Origin: Phytophthora colocasiae
Taxonomy: Eukaryota; Oomycota; Peronosporomycetes; Peronosporales; Peronosporaceae
NCBI GenBank assembly: GCA_018806915.1
Contig: JAGKQI010000050.1
Coordinates: 124,001 to 188,000, forward strand
Reading direction: 5' to 3'
DNA length: 64,000 nt
The position numbers and the translations under genes were made by a program. Below, piece after piece: positions 10,291-55,418 of this stretch (its first letter is position 1; every line of letters starts with the position of its first letter). Under the pieces are notes generated by a model. It was not told where the DNA came from, did not search any database, and worked only from the letters and a program-made list of their open reading frames with translations.

Positions 10291-10292
10291 GT

Positions 10293-25866: not shown

Positions 25867-27551
25867 TGACATGATGTTATTTCCGATTTTCGAGCGACAG
25901 GTGGATATTACGTTACGATGTGATTGGTTATACTATGGGTTATAAGCGAAAGGGACTTAGGGCCGCGGCCGCACCCGTGCGACATCTGTGGAAGATTGTG
26001 GACAAACCTTCGCCTGACTGTAAAGGGGCCCAAAGGACCAGAAGTGTACTTTAGAGTGTTCACAACTCTGAAGGTCAACTACACTCTGTCTGGTCACCGG
26101 ACTTTCCCCGACGAGAGTGCCTAAGTTCTGGCGGAAAGTCTCTCAGAAGAACGTATCTCTGAGAGACCTCATCCCGTTACCGTCCAGCGCGACGATGGAT
26201 GGTTCAAGGATTCACAACATATACCCGCAGAGACCAAGTATCGCGCGCCGGACGCCGCGCACCCGCACAACCCTCAAGATCTTCCTGTACGTTGAAGCAT
26301 TAGTGCTCCGTACTCTGGTTTCTTACTCAAAACTCTGGTATCTCTAACTCTGAGTGACTAAGACTCTGAAAACCAAGTGATATCAGACTCTGAAAACCAG
26401 GATACCAGACTCTGAAACCACCGAAGATCCAAGACCATACTGAAACCAAGTGAACCCAAGTTCAAGTCACGCATTCAAGTGATTACTGACCTGCACATCC
26501 CCCCGTAAGGACGTCTCTACTTGTTATCCCATCGAGATCTGCTGCACAAATTGCATACTGAAGCCAAGTCAAGATACCTGATGCATACGAGAACCAAGTG
26601 TACCTGAGATTTGAAGACTGACTGCTCAAAGGACGCAAAAGACGACAAGAAGAAGAGAGTTACCAGAGATATATGATAGTTATGAGGAAGATAAACGATA
26701 AACAGAGTTCAATTTGCTTGCTACTGCACAAGTCCGCTTGAGAGGTATCCAAGCCACTACGTCATTACGTGAGTCGTGTGATCTCCACCAAATTCAATCC
26801 CCTTAGGTGGAGATCAGGTAACGCAGAGACCTGAAAGGACCCGCCTATTCCATATCCTAGTTGGGTCGTTTGTGTGTCTCTAGCGGTAGCCCATTTCATA
26901 TTGATCGTTTGGACAGGCTCTGGAAACTAGACAGTCGTTTTCAGAGTGCAAGGTAGACTGTTATATATAGCCGATTGTATTGGTTTATATTTTTCCCTCT
27001 ATACTAGAGGGTGGTGCGCGAACGTAAAGGGATACCAGACAGACCAGGTGTCTGGTAGCAAGTCCCTAGTTGACCTGGAGTGTTAGCCCACCGTTCAAGG
27101 GCCTAGAAAGAATAAGAACGGCTATATATATTTGTATATTTTCGAACTCTGTGTATTGGTTGTTTATCTCTGAAAGTCAGGTACCTCGGTTCTGGATTTG
27201 TGATATTCAGACACCGATTTCAAACTTTCTCTGGTATATTAACCTCTTTTCGACCGCCGACTTCCTGGAAACCATCTTGGTTCCCAGAGATTCCGACTCC
27301 CGAACGCTCCTGGAAGGATTTCCTGAATACCGACACCAGACTCCAAGGGAACCCCAACTTCTCCTCACACCACACTCTCTGACTCCGGCGAGGGTCATAT
27401 TTCCGAAGACAACGAACCCACGAGGATACCGCAAGGTACCACACGCCAACCTACCGTTGTACGGCTCTGAAAACCCCTTTTCAGTAGTCGTATAACTAGG
27501 GTTCACTATACGCCCCTGCTCCGCGACCAAAGTTTCACCGACTTCGCGACA
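25867..27551 (+). repeat. 3' LTR of element B (1,685 bp)
   Basis: TGACATGATG to CTTCGCGACA. It is nearly identical to the 5' LTR over the first ~1.3 kb. Over the last ~380 bp (27,170-27,551) it is closer to the C LTRs than to its own 5' LTR, for instance in the stretch reading TGAAAGTCAGGT. Confidence 0.93.
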
Positions 27552-37025: not shown

Positions 37026-38611
37026 TCAAATGAAACGCAGCTGCTCACTCACTACCGCTATCCTTGTCAGCGTCGCCACAATCGCGCTTCCTTCGTCGCG
37101 GCACAGTCCCCGTCGTGTCTTCTTACGCTTGCCTGCGTCCTGACCCGGCCGTCGTAGCACGATACGCTTCCCCAAGGGTGCTGGAATGTCCTGCCCAGCG
37201 TTGAAATCGTCGTGCCAGATGTCGTAACAGGTTTTGGCGACGCCCTTGTACTGGCGGCGGAACTTGTTACACAACCAGCACTTAGCGTCGTCGATAGAAC
37301 AGCGCTCGCAGTAGTATGTTGTCGCGAAAGACTTCTTCTTGTCTGTGCGCAAGACGGCACAGACCTTGCACGATCTTTGGCGGCGCTTTTGAACACCGCT
37401 AATGACGACCCAGTCGGCTTGCTGTAGTGCATGTGTGAGCCGCACGGGTGCCCGTCGACGCTTCTGACTAGACGGAGGTGGCGTCTCTTTAACACCGGCA
37501 AAATCCTCAGCCTTGAGTTGCAGTAGCTGATTTTGTAGCACTAAGAACCACTCGGATCGTCGCATGGCAGTTGTCCCCTTGATCTTGGCCCCTTCCTTGT
37601 GTGTAAGATACGCATTTACCAGCACCAGATCCAGGAAGCCTAAGAACAGGCCCTTGTAGTACTTAGAAAATCTTGTGGACATCGGCAGCGAATACGACTG
37701 AAGGCGGAGTTGATCATGGACATCAACTCCGCTCATCCAGTTCTGGTAGTTGTTCACGGCGGAAGGACACGGTACGCGAACGGAACCTCTCTTCTTCAGC
37801 TTCCTTTCGATCGATGACTCTGCCATAACGGCGCCAGTGCATAGGTAATAGACAGGTTTTCGATCCCACCAGACGTAAGCAATCATAGTCGGCACTGCAA
37901 TAGATCGCGAAAAGGAGAATGATCCATGGGGAATGAATGCTGGGCGTGTCTTGCTTCTAGACTGGAGCTTCTTGTTGTACCCGAGCCGGCTCGTCATGAT
38001 TGTACCGACAACGTAGACATTCATAGCAAGCAACTCCACAGCCAGAAGCACCGATGAGTAGTAATGGTCAATTACGACAGTGTGCCAGGCATGCCTAGCA
38101 CGAGCGAGTACGACCTTTAAATTCTGCAACACAGCCGCAGCGCCAGTCTTATAATCCACTGTGGCGTCAGCACCATCGATAGTGGCCCCCTTGACAACAT
38201 AGACTTCAAATCTAGATAGTTACGACATTCGATGTTGTCAGACACACTCAACACCGCCAGTTACGACATACAAATTATTTCCAAAAAATTACCTGTGGCA
38301 GTACGACGTCTTGGCGTCCCACAGCATAAATAGTTTTGAACCATACCGATGAGGCTTGTCGGACATGAACATACGGGTTGTGTTCCTCCTTGACGTAGCC
38401 GGCAACACACCCTCGTCGAACGAGAAGATGGCGGGGAGTGTCCATCCAGTCAGAAATCGCTCCTGGATCTTGTCGACGACGGGTCGAAGTTTCCACAGCT
38501 TGTCCTGCCCGTGATCGACTGTGTTATCGACGAAATGCAGGTCCCGCAAAATGTCATGACACCTGTCACGAGTCATAAATCTTCCGAACAGTCCTGCAGG
38601 CACGGCACCAT
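37026..38611 (-). pseudogene. piggyBac-like transposase, C-terminal part
   Basis: Two exons (38,611-38,293 and 38,211-37,026) joined in frame over an 81-bp intron. All three catalytic Asp are visible in the expected contexts: SFDEGVLPATSRR, VIDHYYSSVLLAVELL and GVDVHDQLRLQS. The C-terminus is a Cys-rich zinc-binding tail (CKVCAVL, YYCERC, CWLCNKF), usual for the family. The stop is at 37,026. The gene is interrupted at 38,611 by element C; codons continue in frame at 55,419-56,472. Without C the core would be intact. Confidence 0.88.
38212..38292 (-). other. Intron in the piggyBac-like gene
   Basis: Minus strand: GTAATTTTTT at the donor and CTATCTAG at the acceptor, 81 bp. Splicing joins ...SYCHR to FEVYVVKG without a frame change, while the unspliced reading hits stops. 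It contains two ATGTCGTAACT motifs. Inferred from sequence only. Confidence 0.65.
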
Positions 38612-40295
38612 TGTCGCGAAGTCGGTGAAACTTTGGTCGCGGAGCAGGGGGCGTATAGTGAACCCTAGTTATACGACTACTGAAAAGGGGTTTTCAGAGC
38701 CGTACAACGGTAGGTTGGCGTGTGGTACCTTGCGGTATCCTCGTGGGTTTGTTGTCTTCGGAAATATGACCCTCGCCGGAGTCTGAGAATGTGTTGTGAA
38801 GAGAAATTGGTGTTCCCTTGGAGTCTGGTGTCGGTATTCAGGAAATCCTTCCAGGAGCGTTCGGGAGTCGGAATCCCTGGGAACCAAGATGGTTTCCAGG
38901 AAGTCGGCGGTCGAAAAGAGGTTAATGTACCAGAGAAAGTCTGAAAATCGGTGTCTGAATATCACAAATCCAGAACCGAGATACCTGACTTTCAGAGATA
39001 AACAACCAATATACAGAGTTCGAAAATATACAAATATATACAGCCGTTCTTATTCTTTCTAGGTCCTTGAACGGTGGGCTAGCACTCCAGGTCAACTAGG
39101 GACTTGCTACCAGACACCTGGTCTGTCTGGTATCCCTCTACGTTCGCGCACCACCCTTATATAGAGGGAAAATATAAACCAATACAATCGGCTATATATA
39201 ACAGTCTACCTTGCACTCTGAAAACGACTGTCTAGTTTCCAGAGCCTGTCCAAACGATCAATATGAAATGGGCTACCGCTAGAGACAAAACAAACGACCC
39301 AACTAGGATATGGAATAGGCGGGTCCTTTCAGGTCTCTACGTTACCTGATCTCCACCTAAGGGGATTGAATTTGGTGGAGATCACACGACGTACGTGATG
39401 ACGTAGTGGCTTGAATACCTCTCAAGCGGACTTGTGCAGTAGCAAGCAAATTGAACTCTGTTTATCGTTTATCTTCCTCATAACTATCATATATCTCTGG
39501 TAACTCTCTTCTTCTTGTCGTCTTTTGCGTCCTTTATGCAGTCAGTCTTCATATCTCAGGTACTCTTGGTCTTTGTATACATCTGGTACTTTGACTTGGT
39601 CTCAGTATGCAGTCTGTGCAGCCGATCTCAATGGGTTGACAGGTAGAGACGTCATTACGGGGGATGTGCAGGTCAGTAATCACTTGAATGCGTGACTTGA
39701 ACTTGGGTTCACTTGGTTTCAGTATGGTCTTGAATCTTCGGTGGTTTCAGAGTCTGGTATCCTGGTTTTCAGATTCCGATATCACTTGGTTTTTCAGAGT
39801 CTTGGTCACTCAGAGTTAGAGATACCAGAGTCTTGAATACGAAACCAGAGTACGGAGCACTAATGCTTCAACGTACATGAAGATCTTGAGGGTTGCGCGG
39901 GTGCGCGGCGTCCGGCGCGCGATACTTGGTCTCTGCGGGTATATATTGTGAATCCTTGAACCATCCATCGTCGCGCTGGACGGTAACGGGATGAGGTCTC
40001 TCAGAGATACGTTCTTCTGAGAGACTTTCCGCCAGAACTTAGGCTCATCGTCGGGGAAAGTCCGGTGACCAGACAGAGTGTAGTTGACCTTCAGAGTTGT
40101 GCACACTCTGAAGTGCACTTCTGGTCCTTTGGGCCCCTTTACAGTCAGGCGAAGGTTTATCCACAATCTTCTACAGATGTCGCACGGGTGCGGCCGCGTC
40201 CCAAAGTCCCTTTCGCTTATAACCCATAGTATAACCAATCACATCGTAACGTAATATCCACCTGTCGCTCGAAAATCGGAATTAACATCATGTCA
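38612..40295 (-). repeat. 3' LTR of element C (1,684 bp)
   Basis: Plus strand TGTCGCGAAG to CATCATGTCA. It has the hairpin at 39,347-39,384 and the PBS-like CGCGCACCA (minus TGGTGCGCG) at 39,145-39,153. An antisense promoter in this LTR would be the natural driver of the ORF starting at 40,351; no such promoter has been shown. Confidence 0.95.
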
Positions 40296-40350: not shown

Positions 40351-43300
40351 ATGGCCAGGCCTATCAAACATTCTGATAGACGGTTTTCAGAGCGTAGCGT
40401 AGCTGCAACTCTTTGTCAGTTACCTGGTTTTCAGAGTCTCTGGTGTCCCGTCGCACAATCTGATTCTCTCAGACTCAGAAACTTGAATTTGACTTGCCAA
40501 ACAGGCGATCATTTTCAAAACTCCGTCCTTTCGCTCATGACTGAGGAAACGAACGCTTCTCTGAGCTCAAACGCCCCACCGAATGGGGCGGCAGGCGACG
40601 CCACAGGCACTTGTCCTGCTTCGGCAACTGCCAATATGTCGCAGGGTGGAAATGTTGGTTCGGCCACATCGCCAGGTGGCAGCCCTAGCGCCCCAGCCCA
40701 TGCATCCCAACCTACCGACTCACAGGTAGATGGTCCGACTGAGGACCTCCCTGGTGATGACATGAACTCGGCCGGTGTTGGTGATCTCTCGCCACCAGTG
40801 GTTTCACGTGGGGAATCTCACTCTGAATTCTCTGAGGGAACTCCTGGTGTCTTCAGACCGCGAGCCTTTGGTGCCCCACGGCTTTTGTCTACGGAAGAGG
40901 TCGATCGGCTGTTTCGTCAGGGTCTGGTGACAACCACAGGGGATCAAGTGACGGCGTTGGGGGACTCTGATGTTCCCCAGAACTATATCGCTCCCAGCGT
41001 GAAGCCAGAGGACGTGCCTTTCTGGTGAGTACCCCGCGCGAGCTGAAGACTTCAGAAGAGGGCGCCACATAGCGAATGCGTACGGTGGCCCCTGTGTGCT
41101 CGTGGGTTACGAGGCACTTACTGATGAAGACCTCCGGGAGCTGGAGCGAGTGATTCCAAGCTTCGACCCCGCCGAAGTTGTGTCTCCGTGCGCCCAGACT
41201 CCAGACGTGCGTACTCTGGATGCTTTGACGTCGTCTGTGGATGTTCGCCGGGAACTGGGGTCTCTGGTTTCTCATGTCTCTCCCACTCGGCTTGCCGAGA
41301 AAGTTTTTCGGACGGCCGGATGCTTAAAGCTTATGACTGCTGCTCACCGTCGCCTTCGGGAACGCGTTGGTTCTCAGAGCGGTGTCGCCTTGATTGATGC
41401 TGCAGCAGCGCGCTCTGAATGCGAAGAAATCAAGCGTGAGTGGGTACTGCACTGTCAATACTGGAAACACGAGCTTAAGTGTGCCCAGCAAGACGCCGGT
41501 GCGGTAGAAGAACGCATGACTTCGGAGATTCAGGATCTCAAAGCTCACTACCAGGACCAAGTGGAAGCTCTGAAGTCGGACAAGGCAGTTCTGAAGTCCC
41601 AAGTCGCTGATCTTCAAGCACAGGTCTCGATTCTGAAGTCGCGTCCTGAGGTCAAGCCCACAGATCCGTGGGGGTTCTCAGAGTTCTTACAAGAGAATTC
41701 TGAAATCTCTGGTAATTGGGATCGGCTCCATGACCTTCTGGTGTCATACCAAGAGGACACTATCGTCCCTGATAACTGGACGACTATCATCAGCGTGACA
41801 GCCTTGGACGCGCGAAAGAAACCCGTTCCTGACTTCAAGAAACGGCTTTCTGAGGAACGAGCTCGTCAGGCAGCTGAGAAGACCGCGAGGACCTCCAGAG
41901 TTCTGGATCTTACCCGTCCAAGTACTGAAACCTCAGAGTCCAAGAGCGAAAGCCCACGGTACCTGTCATATCCGCCGAAGCCCCAGACTCTGAAATCACC
42001 TCCGAAGCGACCGCTCAAGTGGGACTCCAAGAATTTGCAGCGTCGCCCGTCCGGACACAAGCCCGTTGAAGAATCGGCGCTTCCGGCGAATGCAGATTCT
42101 AAGGTGGCAAAGTCTGAAGTCCACAAGAGACTCCCTGGTGACGTGGTCTGGAAGGAAGTTCGACCCGACCTCCGCCAAGCCCTGCTATCTGGGATCAAGT
42201 ATGATAAAGCCATGGAGTGGTTGGCATCGGATAAAGCGGCTCACAGTCTCTTCAGCAGTCCGGCTCTCATTCAGATGTTGGTGAGCCTGGTATTCTCTCG
42301 TCGCCTGGATGCTACTCTTTGGGCCAAGTACGTCCCTGAAGTGTATTACCAGATGGCCGACGAGGTGGTAGATCGTCACATCTCAGCTGGTACCGAGCCT
42401 GCAGCCTGGGGTGATCTGGATGGTCACGTAAATTATCCAGAAAGTGATGTCGAGTCCACCGCCGACAACCCCAAGGACGATCCGGATTACAAGGATTCTG
42501 GTGTGATCGAGTCTGAAGACGAAGACGACGACGAGAGCTCTGATGATGGTGCGTCTGACGACAGCGATTCCGAGAGCGACAAGTCTGAAGACAAGAAGTC
42601 TCAGGACAAGAGGTCCGGGAGCAAGAAGTCTGGAGACAAGAAGTCTGATGACCACCCGCGTCCTGGTTCCAAACGTCCCCGGGATTCTGATGATGACTCA
42701 GACTCTGATGATGGACCTATCATCCCCACCAAGAAATCCAAGAGGAGTATCGCATCCGTAAAGGCCCACACCAGTCCTAAGTCTCGCCCGAAGTCCACCA
42801 GTGGAAGTGGATCGAAGTCCAAAAGTTCTTCTGGGAAAGCGCGTAGTCTGGTGTCCAAGCCCTATAACTCCCTGACGGTCAAGGAGCTCCAGGTGGTGGA
42901 AACACCAGACTGTGAAGCATCCTCCTGGTTGTACTATGGTATCAGGGTACAACGAGTGAGCTCTACCAAGACCACCACTGGCCAGACATTGGGTTTTCCA
43001 GACTACGAGGTGCACAAGCACTCATGTGCCATCCTCAAGAAGCGCTGGGACTCTGAGCGGTACTGTGCAGTTCTCCGCAAGAAGCGCGCCCCTTGGAAAG
43101 TCATGTTCGACAACCGATTCTCAGAGTTTTACTTCCACAAGCGGGAAGAACTGGGGCCCATGGTGTTGGCTGACGTGGAAGACATCGTGCGCAGCATGAA
43201 GAAGCATGCTCAAGCCTTCTGGGAGCGTACGCATTGGGTGACCATGGATGTTGAGGCTGACGACAAGTCTGCAGAGCTTCACAAGTACCGGTCCATGCGT

Positions 43301-43639
43301 CGAGCCGCCATGATTCGTCAGCACAACGCCCTCATCCGAAAGGTCTTGGGGCACAAAGATTTCCCAGAGTCGCTGCTTTCAGAGCCTGGCATCTGGGTTG
43401 TTCCAGTCAAGTCCTGCCCTTGGATCTGGCAAGATCCCAGAGTCGCAGAGCTGGGGGGTCCCAAGTGTCTGAGTCTGGAGACGCAACTGGGTGACTTGGA
43501 CGCTATTGAGCCTGCTCGGATGCAATGGGCCACGGTGAATGCGGACGAAGAGTGGCTCCAGTATGTCCCTGCTGACATCAAGAAGGATCAATTGACACCT
43601 GCGGAGCGTTCCGAGAACCCGATCTCCCTTCACTACTGA
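40351..43639 (+). pseudogene. Antisense ORF of element C (~1,097 codons), two 1-nt losses
   Basis: ATG at 40,351, 55 bp from the LTR, stop at 43,637-43,639. Two single-base losses relative to B (one G near 41,011, one C near 41,035) put 41,012-41,035 out of frame, giving open frames 40,351-41,028 and 41,096-43,639. The 847-codon C-terminal frame is intact. Features: Ser/Pro/Ala-rich head, coiled coil (about 41,400-41,650, with EALKSDKAVLKSQVADLQAQ), acidic Ser/Asp-rich block (about 42,430-42,720), basic KKSKRS, then a compact Trp/Tyr-rich C-terminus. No membrane segment, so not an envelope gene. It converges tail to tail with pol. Function unknown. Confidence 0.82.
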
Positions 43640-44024
43640 AGCTCAGGTGTCCACCATGGTGCCCACGGGAAGGCTGCATCTTCGAGAAGCCAAATAGTTG
43701 TCTGCATTTGTGACGTAAATCCCCGGCCTCAGTGTAGCTCCCTAATCCCTTAATCTTTCAATATCACTCCACATAATCACACTCCTTCTCATCATCTCAT
43801 CATTCATAACTTCGTATCCTCCAGTATTTAATCCTCCACAAACTCACTTCCATATTCACATTCACACAGTCGTTTTATATAAGCAGCAACATGGTCGATC
43901 ACATATCCAAACGCATGAATTTCAGAAATAGGTCTCTGAAAACACGCACTCAGATTACCACACTCTAAAAGTCAATATCTGAAATCCTTCAGATATCCGA
44001 CTCTCAGATGTGTTTTCAGAGTTA
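43640..44024. other. Spacer between the convergent antisense ORF and pol of element C
   Basis: Non-coding and AT-rich in its right half (43,741-43,990), with many short A/T runs and TTATATAAG near 43,875. The left end (43,640-43,750) matches B at 22,410-22,515, where it is joined directly to the protease stub. Both pol and the antisense ORF end here, so it may hold the 3' ends of both transcripts. No clear terminator motif. Confidence 0.5.
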
Positions 44025-46238
44025 TTAGACTCTGGGATGATCGTCTCCGGCCTGCATCGCCTGAAAACGGGCTCGTGCTCGTGCACTCTGATTGAATTCG
44101 TAAAGTAATGCTCCACAGTTCAACTTCGATAACGGCAACCACTCAGTTTCATCGTAACCTTTCCACTTAATCAAATATTCGCGCAGGCGTCTGGACGTCC
44201 TGGTACGCTTGTTCCAACGGGTATCCAGAATCTTCTCCACTTCATACTCGCCGTTTTCAATATCAGGTTCCCAACTATCTTCTGGTAACAGGGCGGCGTC
44301 GAAATCATCATCTTCTGGAATCTGGAGTTCCACCGTGGGTCGTCTGGGGAACAGAGCCCTTGGCTTCAGACGGCTCACATGGACCCAGGGGTTCACGCGG
44401 TAGCCGGTATCTTCAACCTTGAGTCGTACTCTGAAATCGTCCAGCATCTCTTCGATCCTGAAGGGTCCGTGCCACATGTGTGCTAGTTTCCTGCTCAATC
44501 CCGTTTGTACCTTAGGGATGTAGAGCCATACAGCGTCGCCTATAGCGAAACCTGACTTCAGACGCTCTGACAACTCGTTCCATTTTCTGGTCTGTTCTTC
44601 AGACCGGTCACGCTTTGCCTTCTTCTGGAGATCTTCGGCACATGCCAGAGCATAGCTATAGTCTCGTTGCATCTTCCGTCTCCATTCGTACGCAGTTCGC
44701 TCCTGAGTCGTCGATGGCTTGGGTCCAAGCATAGCGGACACCGTCCCATGAGCATCCCAACCATGTACCAGGTAGAAAGGCGTCTCCAGACGGGTGGCAT
44801 CGAATGACGTGTTCAGGGCAAACATCAGACGTTCGGCATGATCATCCCAGTCACTTTGATCGGCTTCAGAGATATATGCCTTAATCGCGCGCACCACAGT
44901 CTGTGCTGATCTCTCCTGCTGGCCGTTGGCTTGAGGCCGGTATCCTAGAGTAGCGCGTTGTCTGCTACCCAAAAGTTCCCTGAAACACTTGAACACCTCA
45001 CTCATAAAACGAGGATCTTGATCATGACGAATCAGAGAGCTAGCACCAAAGTTTCTGAAAACGCGTTCCTCATAAGCCTCTGCTACATCCTGAGCAGTTG
45101 TGACACTCATTGGCTTGCACATTACGTATCCCGAAAACATATCCTGGAACAGCAAGAGAAATGTGTTTCCACGTGCGGATTTCGGCATGTGTGTCACAAA
45201 ATCCATAGACACCACTTCAAATGGCCGGCTGGGCTCAATATTTCCAGGGGACGGTCCAGATTTTGGGGGTCGCCCCTTGCCACTGGCACAGTCTACGCAT
45301 TCCTTCACAAATCTCTCCACATCGGCATACATACCCAACCAGTAAAATTCCGAACTCAACTTCTCAAAGGTTCTCCTGATTCCTTGATGTCCACCTTGGT
45401 AGTCTTCATGAGCATAGTGTAACAGGTCTGGATACAAGTCTCTGGGAACCACCAGTCTGAGTTCGTCAACATTGTCCCGGGGCCGCTCTCGAGTAGCGCG
45501 ACTCAGGCGATATAGTACATCTCTAGAATCCAGAACGAAGTCCTCAGCAACTCTGGCAAGCTTCCTGACTCGGGGTCGTGGTAAATCTCCCACGTCACCT
45601 TTCAGAAACTTCATGAGTTCAACCAAGTACGGGTCCTGGCTCTGATGCGCCTTGATCCGTCGCCAGCGTTCTGCCTGGAACTCCAAAGGCCCCAAAGGTT
45701 CTCGTTCGTCATCATCCTCAGGCAGATTAGCGTCAGGCGGAGCTTGGGCACGGGTTACAGCAATCAATACTCTCACCGATCGAGGCAGGGGTGCGGATTC
45801 CGGACCAGGAGCATCTCCAGACTCTGGAGACACATTATGATTTTCAGAGTCTGGTATCTTTGATTGGGCTTCCATGTTCGGGACGGGGCGAGGCTTCATC
45901 AGTCTCTCATGAACCTTGGATACCAGTCGCAGGTGCATAAGTTCATCCTCATCTTGTACTCGCCAGGCTTCCCCAAGGGTCAAAGTCTTCGAGGTCAGGT
46001 AATCTGCCGCTTGGTTGAACTCGCGCTTCACATGTACCAACTTCAGAGTCTGAAACTTGGTTTTCAGAGACTCAAATTCGGCTAACCTCCGTTGCAAGTT
46101 AGTCTGATTGCAGTTGATCAGTCCCTGAGCCTGTTGTATCGCGATGCGCGAATCTCCCACAACCACCAATTCCTGTATTCCGTGGTCGAGTGCCATCTTC
46201 AGACCGTAATTCAGGCCACAGTACTCTGAGTCGTTCAC
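44025..46238 (-). pseudogene. pol: Element C pol, C-terminal part (extra RNase H remnant, integrase, chromodomain)
   Basis: A 737-codon frame without its own proper start; it continues the polyprotein after an internal deletion. It begins inside the extra RNase H: NDSEYCG (Glu) and VVGDSRIAIQQ (Asp) remain, but the first Asp (LSFDGDAK in A) is lost. Integrase has H-H (HYAHEDYQGGHQG) and C-C (CVDCASGKG), then D, D, E in SMDFVTHMP, RHDQDPRFM and NGQQERSAQ. The C-terminus is a chromodomain (YEVEKILDTRW ... EYLIKWKGYDETEWLPLSKL), about 44,260-44,090, which may direct integration to marked chromatin. Confidence 0.9.
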
Positions 46239-46249: not shown

Positions 46250-49200
46250 TCAGGGGTAACCCTCGGGCTTCCAGAACAGGACCGAGTATCTGGTGTAGAC
46301 TACAATTATTGGACTGGACTCCACCAGAGCTCTGAAATTCTCCAAGACTCTGAGGATCGCGATCACCTCCTTCTCAGCGATATGATACCTGAGTTCGGCA
46401 TCATTCAGGACACGACCCGTAAACCGGACCGGGTGTATTATTCCCTCATATTCTTGTCCCAAGACTGCTGAAGCAGCCCAAGGGTTTGCGTGCGGAATAA
46501 CAACAAACGGTCTGGTTCGGTCTGGATGTCTGAGTAGTGGAGTAGAGACTATCTTGCGTTTCAGAATCTCGAACGCCTCTTTCGCACGAGTCAGGTCTCG
46601 TCCAGCACAAATCTGCTCGTCCGTCAGCTCATAGAGGGTAGCAGCAATCACCGGTAAATCCTCAATAAACTTGTTGTAATAGTTGAGGCTTCCCATGAAA
46701 CTCTGAACTCCCTTCAACGTAGACGGAAATGGCAGTTCTTCAACTCCTTTGACAATCTTAGGTGTTGCCCTCAGACCCTCGGCACTGATTTCGTGGGATA
46801 GGTACGGTATCGACAACTTCCCGAACTCGCTCTTGGGCAAACTCACAGAAATGTTCCAATAGCGAAGCCTGAAAAGCAGGGCATTCAAATCGTCACATAA
46901 TTGGTCCCAAGTCGGTGCTCCATGTGCGATGTCGTCGATGTATGAACTCCTCCCCAGGACTGGGCCCATGCATGTGGGGACGGGAATATTCCTCTGAAAG
47001 ACGGTCATCTGACTTGTGAGGGTTGGTATCTCTGAAATCGGAGTATGGTTCTCAGAGTCTGAAAGATGCTTTTTAGAGTCCTGAGGCTGGAGTTGCAGAA
47101 ATTCCAGAACCTCCGCATCAACTTCAGCTTCTTCTTCTGGTGACAGTCTTACGAATCCCCACAGGCAATTGTCTAACATAGCCTGATACACAAGAGGGGC
47201 GTTCTTCAGACCAAACGGCATCCTTACCCACTGAAAATGTCCAAACGGGCAGATGAAAGCTGATATCAGTCGTGCGCGCTCCGTCATCCTGATCGCCCAG
47301 AAACCACTAGCCATATCCAGGCTCATGAACCACACGGCAGCCTCAAAACCAATTAAGAGATCGTCAATAAGAGGTAGAGGGTAACGCGACAGTTGAATGA
47401 AGCCATTCACGATGCGATAGTCGATGCACATCCGTATGTCAACACCATTCTTCTTGAGAACGATCACAATAGGAGATGCCCACGGGGAGCTGGAGTACTC
47501 GATCAAACCAGTTTCCAGGAGTCTCTTTAGAAGCTCGTATACCTTCAGCATGAGATGAGGAGCGACGGATCTCGGACGTTGAGCTACCGGTTTGGCATCT
47601 CCCACATCCAAATCACAGACCACGCCCCTTGCCGGTGCGGGTGCTGCATTGCCATCTCCCAGGAATATTTTCCTGTGGTACCTCAGAATATCACGCAGTT
47701 TCTTCTCCATTTCTGGGGTCGTCTTTCCTGGTTCTCCAACATCAGCGCTGTCGATATCACACTCTGGTGTCAACTCTTCCAGCTCAGGCAACATGACCAG
47801 TTGGTCACGTAATTGAGCGAGGAGTTCCGTGCCTTCTCGCATATACACTCCTGGCTCCAAGTCCAATTCTTCATTCGAAACCTTCATGCACCGCTCATAT
47901 TCCACTCGTAATTTTTCCACAGGCGTTCCAGGCATCCCCTGAATGGGAATATCCCAGGATTCATCCATTAGGTCGAAATCATCCGCGGGTAACTCAGGGG
48001 TCTGAGAGTCACCTAAGAGACACTCCGGCTTTGAGTTAAGGACGTCACCGGCAATAACAACAGACGAGTCACCAGGGTCTGTATGTGGAATACTTTCAGA
48101 GGATGTTTCCAAATCTCTGGTATCTGTACTGATGTCCGCACTTCCCGTTGACTCACCGGAGCGACCATCTTCCGTCTGGGTGAATGCATCCAGGGCGAAG
48201 CGTACTCGTTTCACGGTCGGTGGTGACTCTGGTTTCACGAACTGCACTCGAGCGTTGTCAAACCTTGGACGTTGCAGTATTTCAGTCGGCCACGGGTAGT
48301 CCGGGCGATCTACACACGGGGGCTGTGGCATCAAAGCCTCCAACTCCGCCTCTCTCTTCATACGTTTCTTAGTCTCTGGTGACGGGGTGCTTTCCAGGAT
48401 CAGAACCTCCCAATCACGATAGGCAGCGGAACCTGGACGCACGAAACGTCCATGCCTTGGGAAGAAACCATATTCCACGATCCTCGCGACATCAGAAAGT
48501 TCATTGACCCACGTGTTTTTATCAGAGATGTTTACCACGCGAACGGCCACGGGCCAAGATCGGGCCGCATAGATCAGCTGGGTAACCCAGCGGTCACCGC
48601 GTCCGGCCCACACGACTTCCCTTTGGGGGTTCGTTGGCCCATAGTCAATTCGGACAATGAACTCCTCGCCCGGACTCAGAAGGACAGCCTCGCTTGGTCT
48701 AACCGACCTGTTACGACCAATGTGATCACCAGGTTCCCAATTACACATCATCACCACTACCTCGTCTGGTAACGACACCAGACCTTCACGAGCACTAATT
48801 CTCACTCCAGCAGCAAACATAAAACCCATTCCCAGAAGCACGTCAATTCCTTCACCGATATTCGCGACCCAAACATCCACAATATATACCACTCTTGGCC
48901 CTAGCGTCAATTTGATCTCAGCGCTGGCACCAATATATGTTGGGACACCACCCATTCCTGACACCTTGGTCTGCTTGTGCGACTTAAGTCTGAGTCCGAG
49001 CTTACGCGCAAAGTCGTAACTCAGAATATTTATGGTCGCACCAGTATCCAAGAGAATCTTGGTCCGATGGTCATTCACAGCACCATACACCATCACCACA
49101 TCCCTCTTTGACCGATCAGGGTAGTTATCTTCCCACCAGCCATAACACTCGCCATCCTTCAACCTGAACGATACTGAGTCGTCTGGTGTCGGGTCGGCGT

Positions 49201-49336
49201 CGTCGGCGATCTCAGGTAGCTCGTTCCCTGAGTTTCCAGAAGGTATGGTCGATTCTTGGGCAAAAGTAGTCATGCATTGTTGAGTGTTATCGTGAATCTT
49301 TCTCAGCTCTGGCCCTACACACACTAGAACACACAA
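46250..49336 (-). CDS. pol: Element C pol, N-terminal part (protease, reverse transcriptase, degenerate RNase H)
   Basis: 1,028 codons. The frame is open from the gag slippery site at 49,393, so Pol is probably made by -1 frameshift; the first ATG (MTTFAQES) is near 49,274. Retropepsin LLDTGATINIL lies at about residue 95, and the RT domain at about residues 590-860 (SRYPLPLIDDLL, FMSLDMASGFW, MPFGLKNAPLVYQAML, SSYIDDIAHG). About 70 extra residues lie between the last two RT motifs. The RT-linked RNase H lacks two usual Asp: PHAN replaces TDAS and VYTRYS replaces a TDH motif. After YTRYSVL a ~340-nt deletion relative to A ends the frame. Confidence 0.9.
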   Translation of the reverse strand: MCVLVCVGPELRKIHDNTQQCMTTFAQESTIPSGNSGNELPEIADDADPTPDDSVSFRLKDGECYGWWEDNYPDRSKRDVVMVYGAVNDHRTKILLDTGATINILSYDFARKLGLRLKSHKQTKVSGMGGVPTYIGASAEIKLTLGPRVVYIVDVWVANIGEGIDVLLGMGFMFAAGVRISAREGLVSLPDEVVVMMCNWEPGDHIGRNRSVRPSEAVLLSPGEEFIVRIDYGPTNPQREVVWAGRGDRWVTQLIYAARSWPVAVRVVNISDKNTWVNELSDVARIVEYGFFPRHGRFVRPGSAAYRDWEVLILESTPSPETKKRMKREAELEALMPQPPCVDRPDYPWPTEILQRPRFDNARVQFVKPESPPTVKRVRFALDAFTQTEDGRSGESTGSADISTDTRDLETSSESIPHTDPGDSSVVIAGDVLNSKPECLLGDSQTPELPADDFDLMDESWDIPIQGMPGTPVEKLRVEYERCMKVSNEELDLEPGVYMREGTELLAQLRDQLVMLPELEELTPECDIDSADVGEPGKTTPEMEKKLRDILRYHRKIFLGDGNAAPAPARGVVCDLDVGDAKPVAQRPRSVAPHLMLKVYELLKRLLETGLIEYSSSPWASPIVIVLKKNGVDIRMCIDYRIVNGFIQLSRYPLPLIDDLLIGFEAAVWFMSLDMASGFWAIRMTERARLISAFICPFGHFQWVRMPFGLKNAPLVYQAMLDNCLWGFVRLSPEEEAEVDAEVLEFLQLQPQDSKKHLSDSENHTPISEIPTLTSQMTVFQRNIPVPTCMGPVLGRSSYIDDIAHGAPTWDQLCDDLNALLFRLRYWNISVSLPKSEFGKLSIPYLSHEISAEGLRATPKIVKGVEELPFPSTLKGVQSFMGSLNYYNKFIEDLPVIAATLYELTDEQICAGRDLTRAKEAFEILKRKIVSTPLLRHPDRTRPFVVIPHANPWAASAVLGQEYEGIIHPVRFTGRVLNDAELRYHIAEKEVIAILRVLENFRALVESSPIIVVYTRYSVLFWKPEGYP

Positions 49337-49351: not shown

Positions 49352-49399
49352 ATGCCCGGCGCGTTTCGGATCCCCATCCGACGGGCATATTAGTTTAAC
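49352..49399 (-). promoter_or_regulatory. Element C gag-pol -1 ribosomal frameshift signal
   Basis: Slippery heptamer GTTAAAC (49,393-49,399) read as G TTA AAC in gag, then TAA stop (49,390-49,392). One base later comes a hairpin: outer stem ATGCCCG/CGGGCAT (49,382-49,388 with 49,352-49,358) stacked on inner stem TCGGAT/ATCCGA (49,376-49,381 with 49,366-49,371), GGGG loop and a 7-nt bulge. The -1 frame from AAA CTA onward is open straight into pol, whereas the 0 frame stops about 20 codons after a readthrough. Confidence 0.7.
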
Positions 49400-52300
49400 G
49401 GCTTCCCAGAGTCTGCCTCACCACTCAGGAGTTTCTCCCGTAGGTGGTTCGGCATGTCCTTGAGTGCACCTTGTCGAGCGAGTTGCTTGAGTGCTTCCAG
49501 AGTTTTCAGATCTTCACAGGGTTTTCCAGGGTGTACTCTTCCACATACTTCACAGGGTGGCATCCGACACATTCGACTCGGGTGTCCTTTTTCCTGACAT
49601 CGGTCACACGTGACGTCTCTCCAGCAATCTTCTTCTGAATGTCCTGAGCGTTGACATTTTTCACAGAACTTGTTCCAGTAACCACCATTCTCATGACGCC
49701 TTTGATGGAACCCCTGACCTGACGATCCAGACGGGGACTGGGGCGGCGGACGCCATCCCATGTTATCCATCACTCGATATACCTCATTCGTCAGAGTCTG
49801 CGTCCAATCTGCACTTGGTGGAGCCTTCGAATTGTTCGAAGATGCCTGCGCAGTACTTTCATCGCGGGTAGACTCTGAAGTCGCACTTGGAGTTCTGGAA
49901 TCACCTGTCTGATCTCTGGTATCCTGATTGGCTTTCAGAGATTCCTTATGATTTTCTGAGTTTTCAGAGTCATAGTCTTCAGAATCCACATCTCTTGCGA
50001 CATAAGTCCGATGCACACGCTTGGGCTTGAACTGTCCTCGCGGAATATTGTCAGCCCGGAAGTCTCGAGACTTGGCAGGGGTCATTTCTTGGTCACCAGT
50101 TCGCCACACATCTTCATCTTGCTGCAACGCATATTCCAAGTCTGAAATTCGTCGAAATCTCTGACCTTGCAGCGACGTTTTCAGGCGTGCATCCTTAATC
50201 TTCGTGATGAATCGCAGTACATGCTTCTCAAGACGCTTGGACGACTTCCGGAAATCGATGTCAGCTTTTCCAGCGGCAGAATTAAGTCGGTAGAAAAATT
50301 CAAGCGGAGTCTCAGAGTCTTTCATAGCCATAGTGAAGTATCTCTCAGAATACGATGACCGAGCTTTGCAGTAACGTTTCTTGAACTCTGAAGACAGCTC
50401 TTTCCAGTCACGGGACACACTTTTGGGTAGCTGGTTAAACCAGTCTCGCGCAGACACAGGGAGCTTCAACTTAAGTTCCTGGATGCGCGTCTTAGTCGAC
50501 CACCCTCCTTGAGAAGCCATATTCGTAAACCGCTCCCACCAATGGACACGTTCCCTGAGAGTAGCTCTGGGGTCGAATTCTCCAAGGTTGTTCGAGTTCA
50601 TGAACGGCCTTAGCGTCAGAAGTGTGGTTCCGGCTTGTGCTTGAGTTGCTGCCGTCAGATTCACCACTTCACCTGGCTCTGAGTCCTCCGATGACGAGCT
50701 CGCAGAGTCTGAGCTTGAATTGTCAGAGTCTCCACCAGAGTCTGGTGCTCTATCATGACGCTTCGCTCTGCGAGACGCTCTTTGATCTCCATTAGGCCGT
50801 CTAGCTTCAGTTTTCCGCGGCGGATCTCGTCTCGGAGTAGGCGCACGTCTAGTATCGCCCTTGGTCTCTGTCACCGAGGTCGCTTGAATCACGTGGGTGG
50901 CCGTAGCAGCAGTAGCGCCGCCATTCCTCTCAGGCTTTACTCGCTTCGTCCCCGTGCTTCGTGCAGGGGTGCCTTGCTGGAAGGTTGCAACCTCTCGAGA
51001 TTCCGTCTTGAGAGCCGGTGAATGTGACATGGGTTCAACCCCAACCCTTCTTGCGTCACTTCTGATTTCTGACCCGGATACTGGATACATAGTTGCAACT
51101 TCAGGGTTGCCTGTATGTAACACTTGGTTCGAAGTTGCCGAATCAGGGTGACCGACCCTTCGCGCCTCTTGAACTTGGGATAATGTCGCCCGAAGGTTTT
51201 TCAACTGACCGGCTTGGAACTGTTGCATGTTCTGAGAATTTTCTTTCTCCCTGTCGCGCTCGGCTTCCATGACTTTCATTCGCTGTTGTAAGGCTTCCAT
51301 TTGAGAAATCCAATCCCGTTTCATCTCGTCAGTCGCACGCGCACGTTCGGCTTCAGTCTCAGCCTCTCTCTGTCGCCAGCGTTCAGCAAACACTGATTCC
51401 AGACGTTGGTTTTCAGAGTTCTGGAGCTCCGTTTTCAGAGTTTCCAACTCTGCCGCGCTGCGATTCCTGAGCTTGCTTTCAGATACCAGACTTCTGCGTT
51501 CTTCAGCATCGTCGGCGCGTCTCTCAGCCTCCAGCCTCGCGTTTTCTGACTTCAACAAGCGCTCGGTGAGCGTCTGAATTTCGCGTCTTGCCTCCAAGTC
51601 ACGTTGCTCTCGACGACGATCGCGTTCCATGGTCTCCAAGCGTTCTCGGGCCAAAAACTCCATCTGCGCTTGCTCCATCCGGCTTTGCCACTCCTGCTGT
51701 TGCCTCATGATGTTCAACTCGATCTGGGCAGGCCCTGATCTCTGAGAGCTTCGAGCTTCAGACTTCGTACGACTCGACGCGATGGAACTCAAGCGTCGGG
51801 ACGGTGGTCTCGGAAGGTCTTCACTCTTCACACTTTGGCGGTGGCTCTGGTGACTTTCGCTTTGGGTGGAGGCAGATACAGGCAGGATCTCCGGAGACAA
51901 TTGTTTGAAATCCCGTGAAGAACTTCCGACAGACACCTGGTTTCCAGACCCCGCACCCGGCACCTCTGGTCTCTCTTCCGGCATGTCGACATCCTCGGAC
52001 TCTGGTTTCACTGGTAACAGCGTTCGCGTCACTTGGATCCCCATGCCTTCAGAGACTGTTCCTCCTACATCAGCGCCTTGAGCGATTAACGCCAGACTTC
52101 CTGTGGGCGGCGGCATATGTGATGCCGCCCCTCGACTCATGGACATCAAGGACGAGTCCGTAGAGCTTCCTCGTGAAGTCTGGAATCCCGACGACTGGTC
52201 ATCCGAGGACCCAATGACACTGGGAATTGGCACATCCGACATCTGAGTCTGAGAGATGCTGTGATCTTCGGACATTGGATTTTCAGACCCTGGTCGCGTG

Positions 52301-53637
52301 TTATCAGAGCGGCTCTCGTACTGCGGCAGTGAAGATAGCGATGGCGTCGATAAAGCTGACGGTGTCGACGGGATTTGTGGGCGTGGCGGTCTCTGCTGTA
52401 AGCGCTTGGACTGCGGCGGCTCGTCACTGCTGGAACCATCAGAGCTGTGCGTCACTCGGAGTCCGGTTACCCGGAGTCGCATGATCAGTCGTTGTCCCTG
52501 TAGGTCAGCATCTTTTTCAGATAATACACTGTCTGCTTCGTTCTTGCCAGTTGTGTCTTCTTGCTTCATGCTGTCTGGGAGTCGGCAAACTTGTAACCTG
52601 GCGGTCACTGTGGCCCACTCAACCAATTCCACTGCGAGTCGACTCTGAAGTTCGGACGCCACACTGCGTACTTGAGACCCAACGACGGCTGACGCCTGCG
52701 TCTGGGGCCAGGTTGGGAGGAGGTTCTGGAATTCGAATCCTGCCTCGTACAACATTGTCTGAAGAACAGCCACACATTCCGGTGCTGTTAACGTGCTCAT
52801 CGGAATCTCAACATAAGATAGGTCTTGGATCCAACCAAAACCATGACGCCTCGCGTGAAACTCTGAGATCCACATATCCTCCGGGAAAACGGAGGAACAT
52901 CGCCATTTGATGTAGTCGCCGGTCGCTGCAGCAGCCTTCTGGAAAGCATCAGCACTAGGCTTCATCGTCGGCCACATATACTCGATGTTTGGCGGGACGA
53001 CCTTGCCTGTGTCCATATCTCTCCAACGGCGGAACTCACGACGCACATACCTCAGAGCTCGTTCCCCGTCAAGCGAATCAGCCCTCCAAGACTCATCAGA
53101 CGGTGTCTTCAGAGACTCTTCAGACTTGATCGCCATGTCATCAGACATTGGTGCGTCTTCAGACTTCGGGGACCGTGGAACACGTTCTTCAGAGTGTCCG
53201 GGTTCTGGTTTCACTTCGTCCACGGACTGGCCGGAAGTTGCCGAATCTGAACACAGATCGATCACTTCCGGGGACTCAACCATATCGGCGCCTCCCTCAG
53301 ACGCCTCATCACCACCCTCGCGGGCAGTGGTCGCCTCGTCACCAGAAGCTTCGACTTCTGACGAGCCTTCAGAACCTTGTTCACCAGGGACAGCAGGTGT
53401 CTCTTGAGCTTCGGGTTCCTCAGCAGGCTGGTCTTCGACCGCCGGTTCTGGGACGCTCACATTCTCAGCTGCCTTCTTCTCTCGCGCAGCTTTCCTCTTC
53501 TCGCGGGCCGCCTTCTGGATAGCATCCAAGTCTGGTTGCTCTTCAGGCGACAAACCTTGTAGACGCTTGGATTGACGTGTCGGAATACTCCGACCACGAC
53601 CACGGCGTCCTCCTCTCGTAGATCCTGGCGTAGCCAT
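49390..53637 (-). CDS. gag: Element C gag, intact, 1,415 aa
   Basis: ATG at 53,637 (MATPGSTRGGRRGRGRS); the frame extends upstream without another ATG. Residues 1-60 are basic with RG repeats. Residues 60-150 are acidic and contain VIDLCS (125-130), a textbook SUMO-interaction core, followed by VKPE (142-145), a SUMO-acceptor-like motif. A long coiled coil spans about residues 640-900. The Gypsy capsid domain is at about 1,010-1,180 (HWWERFTNMASQGGW). At the end are three Cys/His knuckles (CEKCQRSGHSEEDC, CDRCQEKGHPSRMC, CEVCGRVHPGKPC). It is several times longer than a usual Gypsy gag because of the N-terminal ~1,000 residues, which A and B share. Confidence 0.93.
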   Translation of the reverse strand: MATPGSTRGGRRGRGRSIPTRQSKRLQGLSPEEQPDLDAIQKAAREKRKAAREKKAAENVSVPEPAVEDQPAEEPEAQETPAVPGEQGSEGSSEVEASGDEATTAREGGDEASEGGADMVESPEVIDLCSDSATSGQSVDEVKPEPGHSEERVPRSPKSEDAPMSDDMAIKSEESLKTPSDESWRADSLDGERALRYVRREFRRWRDMDTGKVVPPNIEYMWPTMKPSADAFQKAAAATGDYIKWRCSSVFPEDMWISEFHARRHGFGWIQDLSYVEIPMSTLTAPECVAVLQTMLYEAGFEFQNLLPTWPQTQASAVVGSQVRSVASELQSRLAVELVEWATVTARLQVCRLPDSMKQEDTTGKNEADSVLSEKDADLQGQRLIMRLRVTGLRVTHSSDGSSSDEPPQSKRLQQRPPRPQIPSTPSALSTPSLSSLPQYESRSDNTRPGSENPMSEDHSISQTQMSDVPIPSVIGSSDDQSSGFQTSRGSSTDSSLMSMSRGAASHMPPPTGSLALIAQGADVGGTVSEGMGIQVTRTLLPVKPESEDVDMPEERPEVPGAGSGNQVSVGSSSRDFKQLSPEILPVSASTQSESHQSHRQSVKSEDLPRPPSRRLSSIASSRTKSEARSSQRSGPAQIELNIMRQQQEWQSRMEQAQMEFLARERLETMERDRRREQRDLEARREIQTLTERLLKSENARLEAERRADDAEERRSLVSESKLRNRSAAELETLKTELQNSENQRLESVFAERWRQREAETEAERARATDEMKRDWISQMEALQQRMKVMEAERDREKENSQNMQQFQAGQLKNLRATLSQVQEARRVGHPDSATSNQVLHTGNPEVATMYPVSGSEIRSDARRVGVEPMSHSPALKTESREVATFQQGTPARSTGTKRVKPERNGGATAATATHVIQATSVTETKGDTRRAPTPRRDPPRKTEARRPNGDQRASRRAKRHDRAPDSGGDSDNSSSDSASSSSEDSEPGEVVNLTAATQAQAGTTLLTLRPFMNSNNLGEFDPRATLRERVHWWERFTNMASQGGWSTKTRIQELKLKLPVSARDWFNQLPKSVSRDWKELSSEFKKRYCKARSSYSERYFTMAMKDSETPLEFFYRLNSAAGKADIDFRKSSKRLEKHVLRFITKIKDARLKTSLQGQRFRRISDLEYALQQDEDVWRTGDQEMTPAKSRDFRADNIPRGQFKPKRVHRTYVARDVDSEDYDSENSENHKESLKANQDTRDQTGDSRTPSATSESTRDESTAQASSNNSKAPPSADWTQTLTNEVYRVMDNMGWRPPPQSPSGSSGQGFHQRRHENGGYWNKFCEKCQRSGHSEEDCWRDVTCDRCQEKGHPSRMCRMPPCEVCGRVHPGKPCEDLKTLEALKQLARQGALKDMPNHLREKLLSGEADSGKPLN

Positions 53638-53710
53638 CTTGAATATAGACGCTTGACAGGAAACTTTCTCTTCTTGTACTCTCAAATCCGGTGATATCAC
53701 GATTCCAAAG

Positions 53711-53728
53711 ATCCGGGCACGCGCACCA
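53711..53728 (-). other. Primer-binding site of element C
   Basis: Minus strand TGGTGCGCGTGCCCGGAT, two bases from the 5' LTR. Its first nine bases recur within the LTR at 54,264-54,272. Confidence 0.8.
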
Positions 53729-53730
53729 GT

Positions 53731-55418
53731 TGTCGCGAAGTCGGTGAAACTTTGGTCGCGGAGCAGGGGGCGTATAGTGAACCCTAGTTATACGACTACT
53801 GAAAAGGGGTTTTCAGAGCCGTACAACGGTAGGTTGGCGTGTGGTACCTTGCGGTATCCTCGTGGGTTTGTTGTCTTCGGAAATATGACCCTCGCCGGAG
53901 TCTGAGAATGTGTTGTGAAGAGAAATTGGTGTTCCCTTGGAGTCTGGTGTCGGTATTCAGGAAATCCTTCCAGGAGCGTTCGGGAGTCGGAATCCCTGGG
54001 AACCAAGATGGTTTCCAGGAAGTCGGCGGTCGAAAAGAGGTTAATGTACCAGAGAAAGTCTGAAAATCGGTGTCTGAATATCACAAATCCAGAACCGAGA
54101 TGCCTGACTTTCAGAGATAAACAACCAATATACAGAGTTCGAAAATATACAAATATATACAGCCGTTCTTATTCTTTCTAGGCCCTTGAACGGTGGGCTA
54201 GCACTCCAGGTCAACTAGGGACTTGCTACCAGACACCTGGTCTGTCTGGTATCCCTCTACGTTCGCGCACCACCCTCTTATATAGAGGGAAAATATAAAC
54301 CAATACAATCGGCTATATATAACAGTCTACCTTGCACTCTGAAAACGACTGTCTAGTTTCCAGAGCCTGTCCAAACGATCAATATGAAATGGGCTACCGC
54401 TAGAGACAAAACAAACGACCCAACTAGGATATGGAATAGGCGGGTCTTTTCAGGTCTCTACGTTACCTGATCTCCACCTAAGGGGATTGAATTTGGTGGA
54501 GATCACACGACGTACGTGATGACGTAGTGGCTTGAATACCTCTCAAGCGGACTTGTGCAGTAGCAAGCAAATTGAACTCTGTTTATCGTTTATCTTCCTC
54601 ATAACTATCATATATCTCTGGTAACTCTCTTCTTCTTGTCGTCTTTTGCGTCCTTTATGCAGTCAGTCTTCATATCTCAGGTACTCTTGGTCTTTGTATA
54701 CATCTGGTACTTTGACTTGGTCTCAGTATGCAGTCTGTGCAGCCGATCTCAATGGGTTGACAGGTAGAGACGTCATTACGGGGGATGTGCAGGTCAGTAA
54801 TCACTTGAATGCGTGACTTGAACTTGGGTTCACTTGGTTTCAGTATGGTCTTAAATCTTCGGTGGTTTCAGAGTCTGGTATCCTGGTTTTCAGATTCCGA
54901 TATCACTTGGTTTTTCAGAGTCTTGGTCACTCAGAGTTAGAGATACCAGAGTCTTGAATACGAAACCAGAGTACGGAGCACTAATGCTTCAACGTACATG
55001 AAGATCTTGAGGGTTGCGCGGGTGCGCGGCGTCCGGCGCGCGATACTTGGTCTCTGCGGGTATATATTGTGAATCCTTGAACCATCCATCGTCGCGCTGG
55101 ACGGTAACGGGATGAGGTCTCTCAGAGATACGTTCTTCTGAGAGACTTTCCGCCAGAACTTAGGCACTCATCGTCGGGGAAAGTCCGGTGACCAGACAGA
55201 GTGTAGTTGACCTTCAGAGTTGTGCACACTCTGAAGTGCACTTCTGGTCCTTTGGGCCCCTTTACAGTCAGGCGAAGGTTTATCCACAATCTTCTACAGA
55301 TGTCGCACGGGTGCGGCCGCGTCCCAAAGTCCCTTTCGCTTATAACCCATAGTATAACCAATCACATCGTAACGTAATATCCACCTGTCGCTCGAAAATC
55401 GGAATTAACATCATGTCA
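53731..55418 (-). repeat. 5' LTR of element C (1,688 bp)
   Basis: Plus strand TGTCGCGAAG to CATCATGTCA, followed by the CCAT duplication. It has the hairpin at 54,468-54,505 and a CCCTCTT/TATAGAGGG palindrome near 54,272. Near identity with 38,612-40,295 indicates recent insertion. Confidence 0.95.

What the first reader, a model, noticed from the sequence alone, without database searches (positions are those of the whole stretch)
40351..43639. A ~1,100 aa antisense ORF sits between pol and the 3' LTR in two copies of a giant oomycete Gypsy family and looks selected
Seen: C (40,351-43,639, plus strand in a minus-strand element) and B (25,811-22,516) carry the same ORF, starting ~55 bp inside the 3' LTR and converging on pol. 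B lost ~5.3 kb of pol but kept it. Comparing C 42,935-43,294 with B 22,861-23,220 codon by codon I count 17 synonymous and 8 amino-acid-changing codons, far from the roughly 3:1 nonsynonymous excess expected without selection. No sense-strand ORF covers the region. Known: extra antisense ORFs are described in some plant Tat-lineage Gypsy elements; I know of no oomycete report. Inference: a protein expressed from an antisense LTR promoter, possibly for element control or packaging.
Basis: partly seen in the sequence, partly recalled or inferred. Interest (0 to 1): 0.88.

Follow-up and report, generated by a model that had tools for sequence, protein, structure and literature searches.

The report
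Antisense gene in oomycete retrotransposons
A family of mobile DNA elements in a Phytophthora-like water mould carries an extra protein gene written backwards near its end, and the way copies differ shows that evolution has kept that protein working, although what it does is not yet known.

Summary
The ORF is real, repeated and selected, but interrupted in both window copies (C: two 1-bp deletions; B: a 10-bp deletion). In the window's 92.5-Mb genome, 15 of 95 listed matches cover the whole query without stops in open frames of 1,128-1,140 codons. Over 22 copies, variants shared between copies have N/S 0.21 of neutral and 1 stop against 15.6 expected; integrase gives 0.15, LTR 1.26 and spacer 0.85. 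A sister family carries a 53%-identical ORF in the same place. Relatives occur in five named Phytophthora species and one unnamed JGI record. Pol (native RNase H, additional RNase H, integrase, chromodomain) matches the published oomycete group Chronos; my searches found no antisense gene reported for it. Plant elements with such antisense genes are known, and plant Tat elements also have an additional RNase H, so this may be a further convergence. The protein fits no Pfam or PDB family; it has a coiled coil, basic clusters and a conserved VLDLT motif resembling a SUMO-interacting motif. I read it as a nuclear accessory or regulatory protein. Coding status is close to proven, function is inferred, transcription untested.

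The parts
40351..41028 (+). Element C: antisense ORF, first piece (225 codons) from the outer ATG, 56 bp internal to the 3' LTR edge; inner Met used by annotated relatives at 40,539
41096..43639 (+). Element C: antisense ORF, second piece (847 codons as listed from a GTG; the frame is shifted after two 1-bp deletions near 41,010 and 41,032)
41900..41914 (+). Element C: VLDLT motif (resembles a SUMO-interacting motif; that reading is recalled)
43640..44024 (.). Element C: 385-bp spacer between the ends of the convergent antisense ORF and pol; behaves as neutral
44025..46238 (-). Element C: pol, second piece: part of the additional RNase H, integrase, chromodomain
46250..49336 (-). Element C: pol, first piece: protease, reverse transcriptase, native RNase H
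49390..53700 (-). Element C: large gag-like ORF (1,436 codons) with Cys/His knuckles at its end
   Evidence: no Pfam match; gag by position and knuckles read by eye
38599..40295 (-). Element C: 3' LTR
   Evidence: 99.4% to the 5' LTR
53716..55418 (-). Element C: 5' LTR
23946..25811 (-). Element B: antisense ORF, first piece (621 codons)
22516..23958 (-). Element B: antisense ORF, second piece (480 codons), after a 10-bp deletion
16004..17690 (+). Element B: 5' LTR
   Evidence: 98.6% to its 3' LTR
25867..27551 (+). Element B: 3' LTR
444..12103 (-). Copy A of a sister family, truncated exactly at the end of pol; lacks the antisense ORF region

Best explanation
This is a third, antisense, protein-coding gene of Chronos-type Ty3/Gypsy elements in a Phytophthora or close relative, kept by purifying selection in the copies that transpose. 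Shown: a conserved ~1,000-1,100-aa protein is encoded between pol and the 3' LTR, convergent with pol, in two diverged families of this genome; related proteins occur in five named Phytophthora species; nearly all frame-breaking lesions are private to single copies, so the source elements had it intact. Inferred: it is made from an antisense transcript that starts in or beside the 3' LTR. The protein (fast-changing N-terminus, coiled coil, conserved core, linker with basic clusters, Trp-rich C-terminal part, VLDLT motif) acts in the nucleus as a self-associating, possibly SUMO-binding accessory or regulatory factor of the element, working in the way proposed for plant Retand/Grande antisense proteins and known for HTLV HBZ. 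Split odds: selected coding gene 0.97; Chronos element 0.9; nuclear accessory or regulatory role 0.5; SUMO binding 0.35. The single figure below is for the gene together with a nuclear accessory or regulatory role.
For: Copies: 15 of 95 listed matches whole and stop-free in frames of 1,128-1,140 codons; 6 of 22 examined copies in one frame. Selection: shared variants N/S 0.21 of neutral (bootstrap 0.16-0.26), 1 stop against 15.6 expected; controls integrase 0.15, RT 0.08, LTR 1.26, spacer 0.85; dN/dS 0.09-0.18 in 15 of 15 pairs of uninterrupted copies. Lesions from the inner Met on: 17 private frame-changing indels and 7 private stops, 1 frame-changing indel shared by two copies in a C5 run. 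Sister family: same place, 53% identity, dN/dS 0.18 with dS near saturation; 8 of the 40 listed sister pol ends have an ORF match 389-394 bp away in the same order. Relatives in other species. Basic KRPR-type clusters, coiled-coil stretch and VLDLT in 22 of 23 relatives.
Against: No RNA or protein evidence of expression. No match in Pfam or the PDB beyond weak coiled-coil or acidic-stretch hits, so nuclear and regulatory roles rest on short motifs and analogy. The frame is broken in both window copies and in 16 of the 22 examined copies. The genomic place of the relatives in other species could not be seen. The initiator-like stretch before the inner Met is not conserved in the sister family. 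The N-terminal 100 codons are only weakly constrained (ratio 0.66).
Confidence: 0.55

Rival explanations
1. The protein is a particle or reverse-transcription cofactor (for example a Gag partner) that happens to be encoded antisense, not a nuclear regulator.
For: It is constrained nearly as much as integrase (0.21 against 0.15), lesions are private to copies as for a protein used in each cycle, and it has a coiled coil.
Against: Basic clusters and a SUMO-like motif point to the nucleus; antisense expression would uncouple its dose from Gag; no similarity to this gag.
Confidence: 0.25
2. The antisense transcript itself is the functional product (double-stranded RNA, self-limitation), and the ORF is secondary.
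For: Sense and antisense small RNAs along Gypsy elements are on record in P. infestans (PMC3522703, passages); the review PMC7264820 raises this for plants (passages).
Against: Selection acts on amino acids and against stops in one frame; RNA function alone would not do that. It can coexist with the protein.
Confidence: 0.05
3. The ORF is a chance open frame, or a shadow of constraint on the other strand.
For: Only the interruption of the frame in both window copies and in 16 of 22 copies; the opposite-strand frame whose third positions coincide also shows N/S 0.24, as expected from geometry.
Against: 884 variable sites, 518 synonymous where 31.6% are expected (binomial P about 3e-61, treating sites as independent). 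The coinciding opposite frame shows 10 shared stop variants against 14.9 expected, the ORF 1 against 15.6, and that opposite frame holds 31-36 stops in 6 uninterrupted copies. Conservation across families and species.
Confidence: 0.01
4. A recently captured host gene carried as a passenger.
For: No relative in Pfam or the PDB, so an unknown cellular origin cannot be excluded.
Against: Present at the same place in two diverged families and selected in transposing copies; no clearly cellular relative among the hits of three protein searches, each limited to 8,000 scored candidates.
Confidence: 0.06

Closest known systems
Chronos Ty3/Gypsy elements of oomycetes (Ustyantsev et al. 2017, PMC5348765; abstract, sections 5 and 9 and passages read)
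   Same: Pol order native RNase H, additional RNase H, integrase, chromodomain; Peronosporales host.
   Different: In the parts read, that paper describes ORF1 and ORF2; the word antisense does not occur in its main text. Figures and supplements not seen.
[quoted passage not shown] PMC7264820, passages)
   Same: Same place and orientation; large protein of unknown function; nuclear location reported for Grande; coiled-coil or chromosome-type domains in some. Plant Tat elements also have an additional RNase H (PMC5348765, PMC10508981); that Retand and Grande belong to Tat is recalled.
   Different: Transposase_28 (PF04195) is typical of Retand and not found here; host is an oomycete; pol carries a chromodomain, Retand is called non-chromovirus.
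Boty/BcGypsy1 brtn antisense gene of Botrytis cinerea (cited in PMC7264820 and PMC8365987, passages; Zhao et al. 2011 itself not seen)
   Same: Extra antisense gene in a microbial Gypsy element.
   Different: Sequence not compared; fungus; its size and selection were not seen.
HBZ of HTLV-1 (from PMC11963269 section 3 and recall)
   Same: Nuclear regulatory protein from an antisense gene beside the 3' LTR: the working analogy.
   Different: Animal retrovirus, much smaller protein (recalled); no sequence relation tested.

Membership tests
Chronos Ty3/Gypsy | Dual RNase H in pol (native followed by additional) | tested here: met
   Pfam RT_RNaseH_2/RT_RNaseH then RVT_3 before integrase; order seen in one continuous pol frame
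Chronos Ty3/Gypsy | Native RNase H degraded, additional RNase H with full D-E-D-R-D set | tested here: inconclusive
   Read by eye: no Asp at the usual first place of the native domain; SFDGA, SEY, GDS, REFN and ADY in the additional domain; no residue-level profile alignment was made
Chronos Ty3/Gypsy | Chromodomain after integrase | tested here: met
   PF00385, 32.8 bits over cut-off 25.1, residues 665-717 of the second pol piece
Chronos Ty3/Gypsy | RT falls in the Chronos clade | not tested
   No reference RT sequences on hand
Plant Retand antisense (TRP28) genes | Antisense ORF between pol and 3' LTR | tested here: met
Plant Retand antisense (TRP28) genes | Transposase_28 domain (PF04195) | tested here: not met
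   Not among families matched by the 7 members of A3 at E up to 1 (top 25 listed); the genome-wide search is uninformative, its control rang nowhere
HBZ-like antisense regulators (works like, not member) | Antisense transcript starting in the 3' LTR | not testable with these tools
   No RNA data on hand
HBZ-like antisense regulators (works like, not member) | Nuclear location | not testable with these tools
   Only basic clusters such as KRPR seen

The most novel reading that the evidence does not exclude
Oomycete Chronos elements and plant Tat-type elements have independently assembled the same unusual combination: an additional RNase H in pol plus a large antisense nuclear gene between pol and the 3' LTR. 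If the two traits are functionally linked, this is a repeated evolutionary solution, and in Chronos it may run through the host SUMO system, with a SUMO-motif antisense protein facing a Gag rich in SUMO-acceptor-like sites.
Probability: 0.3. Interest if true: 0.8.

Novelty: new variant of a known kind. Interest (0 to 1): 0.62.

Why it matters
Antisense accessory genes of LTR elements are known in plants and in one fungus, but what they do is unsettled. A strongly selected antisense protein without known relatives in an oomycete element shows that the trait is wider than these groups. It would add a further shared trait to the published convergence of oomycete and plant elements (additional RNase H), and makes the role of such genes testable where many young copies exist. 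Practically, such ORFs stand in Phytophthora gene sets as hypothetical proteins and should be treated as transposon genes.

Tried and rejected
Chance ORF and sense-strand constraint: rejected by frame, stop and third-position tests. B's deletion as evidence of selection: rejected. Window copy A as a test of the sister family: uninformative, since it is truncated at the end of pol and no repeat of its LTR was found in the adjoining 6 kb; two other sister copies were fetched. Descent from gag: no similarity. Viral contigs: 44 pattern matches, no relative. PF04195 in the whole genome: uninformative, control rang nowhere. PDB and Pfam: weak coiled-coil or acidic-stretch matches only. An initiator-like TCATTTTCA stretch before the inner Met (consensus recalled) is absent in the sister family, so no promoter is claimed. 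The RT row was out of phase and is replaced; one B/C fragment was out of frame and is replaced.

Start codon unresolved. Annotated relatives start at an inner Met (C 40,539). The 62 codons from the outer ATG (40,351) also look coding: 23 of 45 variable sites synonymous where 29.8% are expected, P 0.002, and differences between the two families fall 18/15/32 by codon position, of 59 codons.

Full report
What is in the window. The window is contig C72, bases 124,001-188,000, of a 92.5-Mb genome in 105 contigs. The antisense protein's nearest database relatives are Phytophthora proteins (84% identity to one of P. citrophthora), so the host is a Phytophthora or close relative (inference; the species was not determined). 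Element C (minus strand) spans 38,599-55,418 with LTRs 99.4% identical; element B (plus strand) spans 16,004-27,551 with LTRs 98.6% identical. In both, the antisense ORF starts 56 bp internal to the 3' LTR edge. In C it ends 385 bp before the end of pol and converges on it.

The frame is broken in both window copies. C has two single-base deletions near 41,010 and 41,032; B has a 10-bp deletion. B against C from the inner Met, 974 codons, gives dN/dS 0.13.

Copies. A search of the same genome listed 95 matches (89 of 745 candidates scored); 15 of the 95 cover the whole 480-aa query without stops in open frames of 1,128-1,140 codons. Six of the 22 carry the ORF in one frame; 16 do not. From the inner Met on, 17 frame-changing indels and 7 in-frame stops are each private to one copy; one frame-changing indel is shared by two copies and lies in a run of five C; a trio of small indels shared by two copies adds up to no shift, and a 5+10-bp pair in one copy stays in frame. 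Larger gaps between aligned blocks were not counted. Single-base deletions concentrate in short homopolymers (42 of 65 in runs of three or more, where 14.5% of bases lie), so some may be assembly errors rather than mutations.

Selection. Variants were split into those seen in one copy and those shared. For the ORF from the inner Met, shared variants are 153 non-synonymous, 366 synonymous and 1 stop, against 337, 167 and 15.6 expected if the same base changes were placed at random: ratio 0.21 (bootstrap 0.16-0.26). Private variants give 0.63. The integrase part gives 0.15 shared and 0.48 private, the RT part 0.08 and 0.43, the LTR 1.26 and 1.12, the spacer 0.85 and 0.98. The antisense gene is thus constrained nearly as much as the integrase part, and the non-coding controls are not. 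The constraint is weakest over the first 100 codons (0.66). The signal is frame- and strand-specific: the two shifted plus frames give 2.7 and 3.3 for shared variants. The one opposite-strand frame whose third positions coincide gives 0.24 by geometry, but shows 10 shared stop variants against 14.9 expected and holds 31-36 stops in 6 uninterrupted copies. The 15 pairs of the 6 uninterrupted copies give dN/dS 0.09-0.18.

A second family. Window copy A, about 77% identical to C over its pol end, stops where pol ends and lacks the ORF. Two other copies of that family, L030 and L031, carry a homologous ORF between pol and an LTR; L030 has one stop, L031 is more broken. L030 against a C-type copy: 53% identity over 1,065 codons, dN 0.42, dS 2.4 (near saturation), dN/dS 0.18; two pol fragments compared between A and C are 89-90% identical in protein, so the antisense protein changes several times faster than pol. 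Setting the sister pol ends (40 of 366 candidates scored) beside ORF matches (47 of 1,049 candidates scored), 8 of the 40 pol ends have an ORF match 389-394 bp away in the same convergent order. In one search, 8 loci have open frames of 1,118 codons without stops in both matched parts; 4 of these 8 lie beside a listed sister pol end, the other 4 are called sister-type from frame length and match pattern.

Other species. Three searches of the protein collection (each scored only 8,000 candidates) gave relatives in P. citrophthora, P. palmivora (two lineages), P. capsici, P. ramorum and P. sojae, and one JGI record without organism name at 31%. None was listed from P. infestans, although PMC5348765 counts 1,555 Chronos sequences there; whether that is annotation practice or absence is open. 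The genomic surroundings of these relatives could not be inspected.

What the protein looks like. From the alignments: a fast-changing N-terminus; a coiled-coil stretch; a conserved WGFxEFLQ...GNWxRLH segment; a linker with VLDLT; a conserved core (VVWKEVRPDLRQ...LVxMLVS...YVPEVYYxMAD); an acidic and basic low-complexity stretch with KRPR; and a Trp-rich C-terminal part (HAQAFWERTHW, WIWQDP, EPARxQW). Pfam and PDB searches gave only weak matches to coiled-coil or acidic stretches and scattered others. A [VILN][VIL]DLT motif is present in 22 of 23 relatives (rows not independent; missing in P0004), VLDLT in 18 of the 20 C-family copies that cover the place, and in both sister copies. That it resembles a SUMO-interacting motif is recalled knowledge. 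This element's gag has 8 [VIL]KxE sites where shuffles give 0.82. Of ten control patterns none had a comparable excess (the reversed pattern had 3 against 0.85). The same motif occurs 1-3 times in two antisense and two pol proteins, with a mild excess in one (P0009, 3 against 0.53). Gag also has an EVIDLC motif, kept in the sister gag. A SUMO link is a concrete but untested idea.

What the element is. Pol carries native RNase H, additional RNase H, integrase and chromodomain in the order published for Chronos (PMC5348765: abstract, sections 5 and 9 and passages). RT phylogeny was not run. The word antisense is absent from the main text of that paper and of PMC10508981 (passages seen). The listings showed no oomycete antisense gene of this kind; they cover open-licence papers, are capped, and were judged from titles and abstract starts. 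[quoted passage not shown] PMC7264820: passages) and in Botrytis (cited there and in PMC8365987: passages). Plant Tat elements also carry an additional RNase H (PMC5348765, PMC10508981); that the plant elements with antisense genes belong to Tat is recalled. The same pair of traits in two distant groups is the most interesting aspect.

Mechanism. Shown: a selected antisense coding gene. Inferred: transcription from in or near the 3' LTR, nuclear action, self-association through the coiled coil, possible SUMO binding. An RNA-only role is excluded as the sole explanation, but silencing through overlapping transcripts may coexist; small RNAs of both strands along P. infestans Gypsy elements are on record (PMC3522703, passages).

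Verdict. Real, repeated and selected, and not found described in oomycetes by the searches named: a new variant of a known kind. Its function is inferred only.

Noticed in passing
window 49,390-53,700 (-): The gag-like ORF has 8 [VIL]KxE sites (SUMO-acceptor-like; recalled consensus) against 0.82 in shuffles, and an EVIDLC motif kept in the sister family's gag.
   Followed up: partly
window 40,539-43,636 against 22,519-25,623: Synonymous divergence between B and C rises along the ORF: dS 0.02, 0.17 and 0.46 in three successive pieces. This suggests mosaic descent by recombination or template switching.
   Followed up: no
L009-L028 and window C: Single-base deletions between copies concentrate in homopolymers: slippage or assembly error.
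   Followed up: partly
window 28,181-28,858 with 59,923-60,600; 33,639-34,051 with 63,136-63,548: Two further repeat pairs, 98.7% (direct) and 99.5% (inverted) identical, outside the three elements; not identified.
   Followed up: no
window 1-443 and L029: Beside truncated copy A, the adjoining 6 kb holds ORFs of 310 and 499 codons and no repeat of the element's LTR; not identified.
   Followed up: no
P0001-P0025: Phytophthora gene sets list this protein as hypothetical proteins, so it may inflate gene counts.
   Followed up: no
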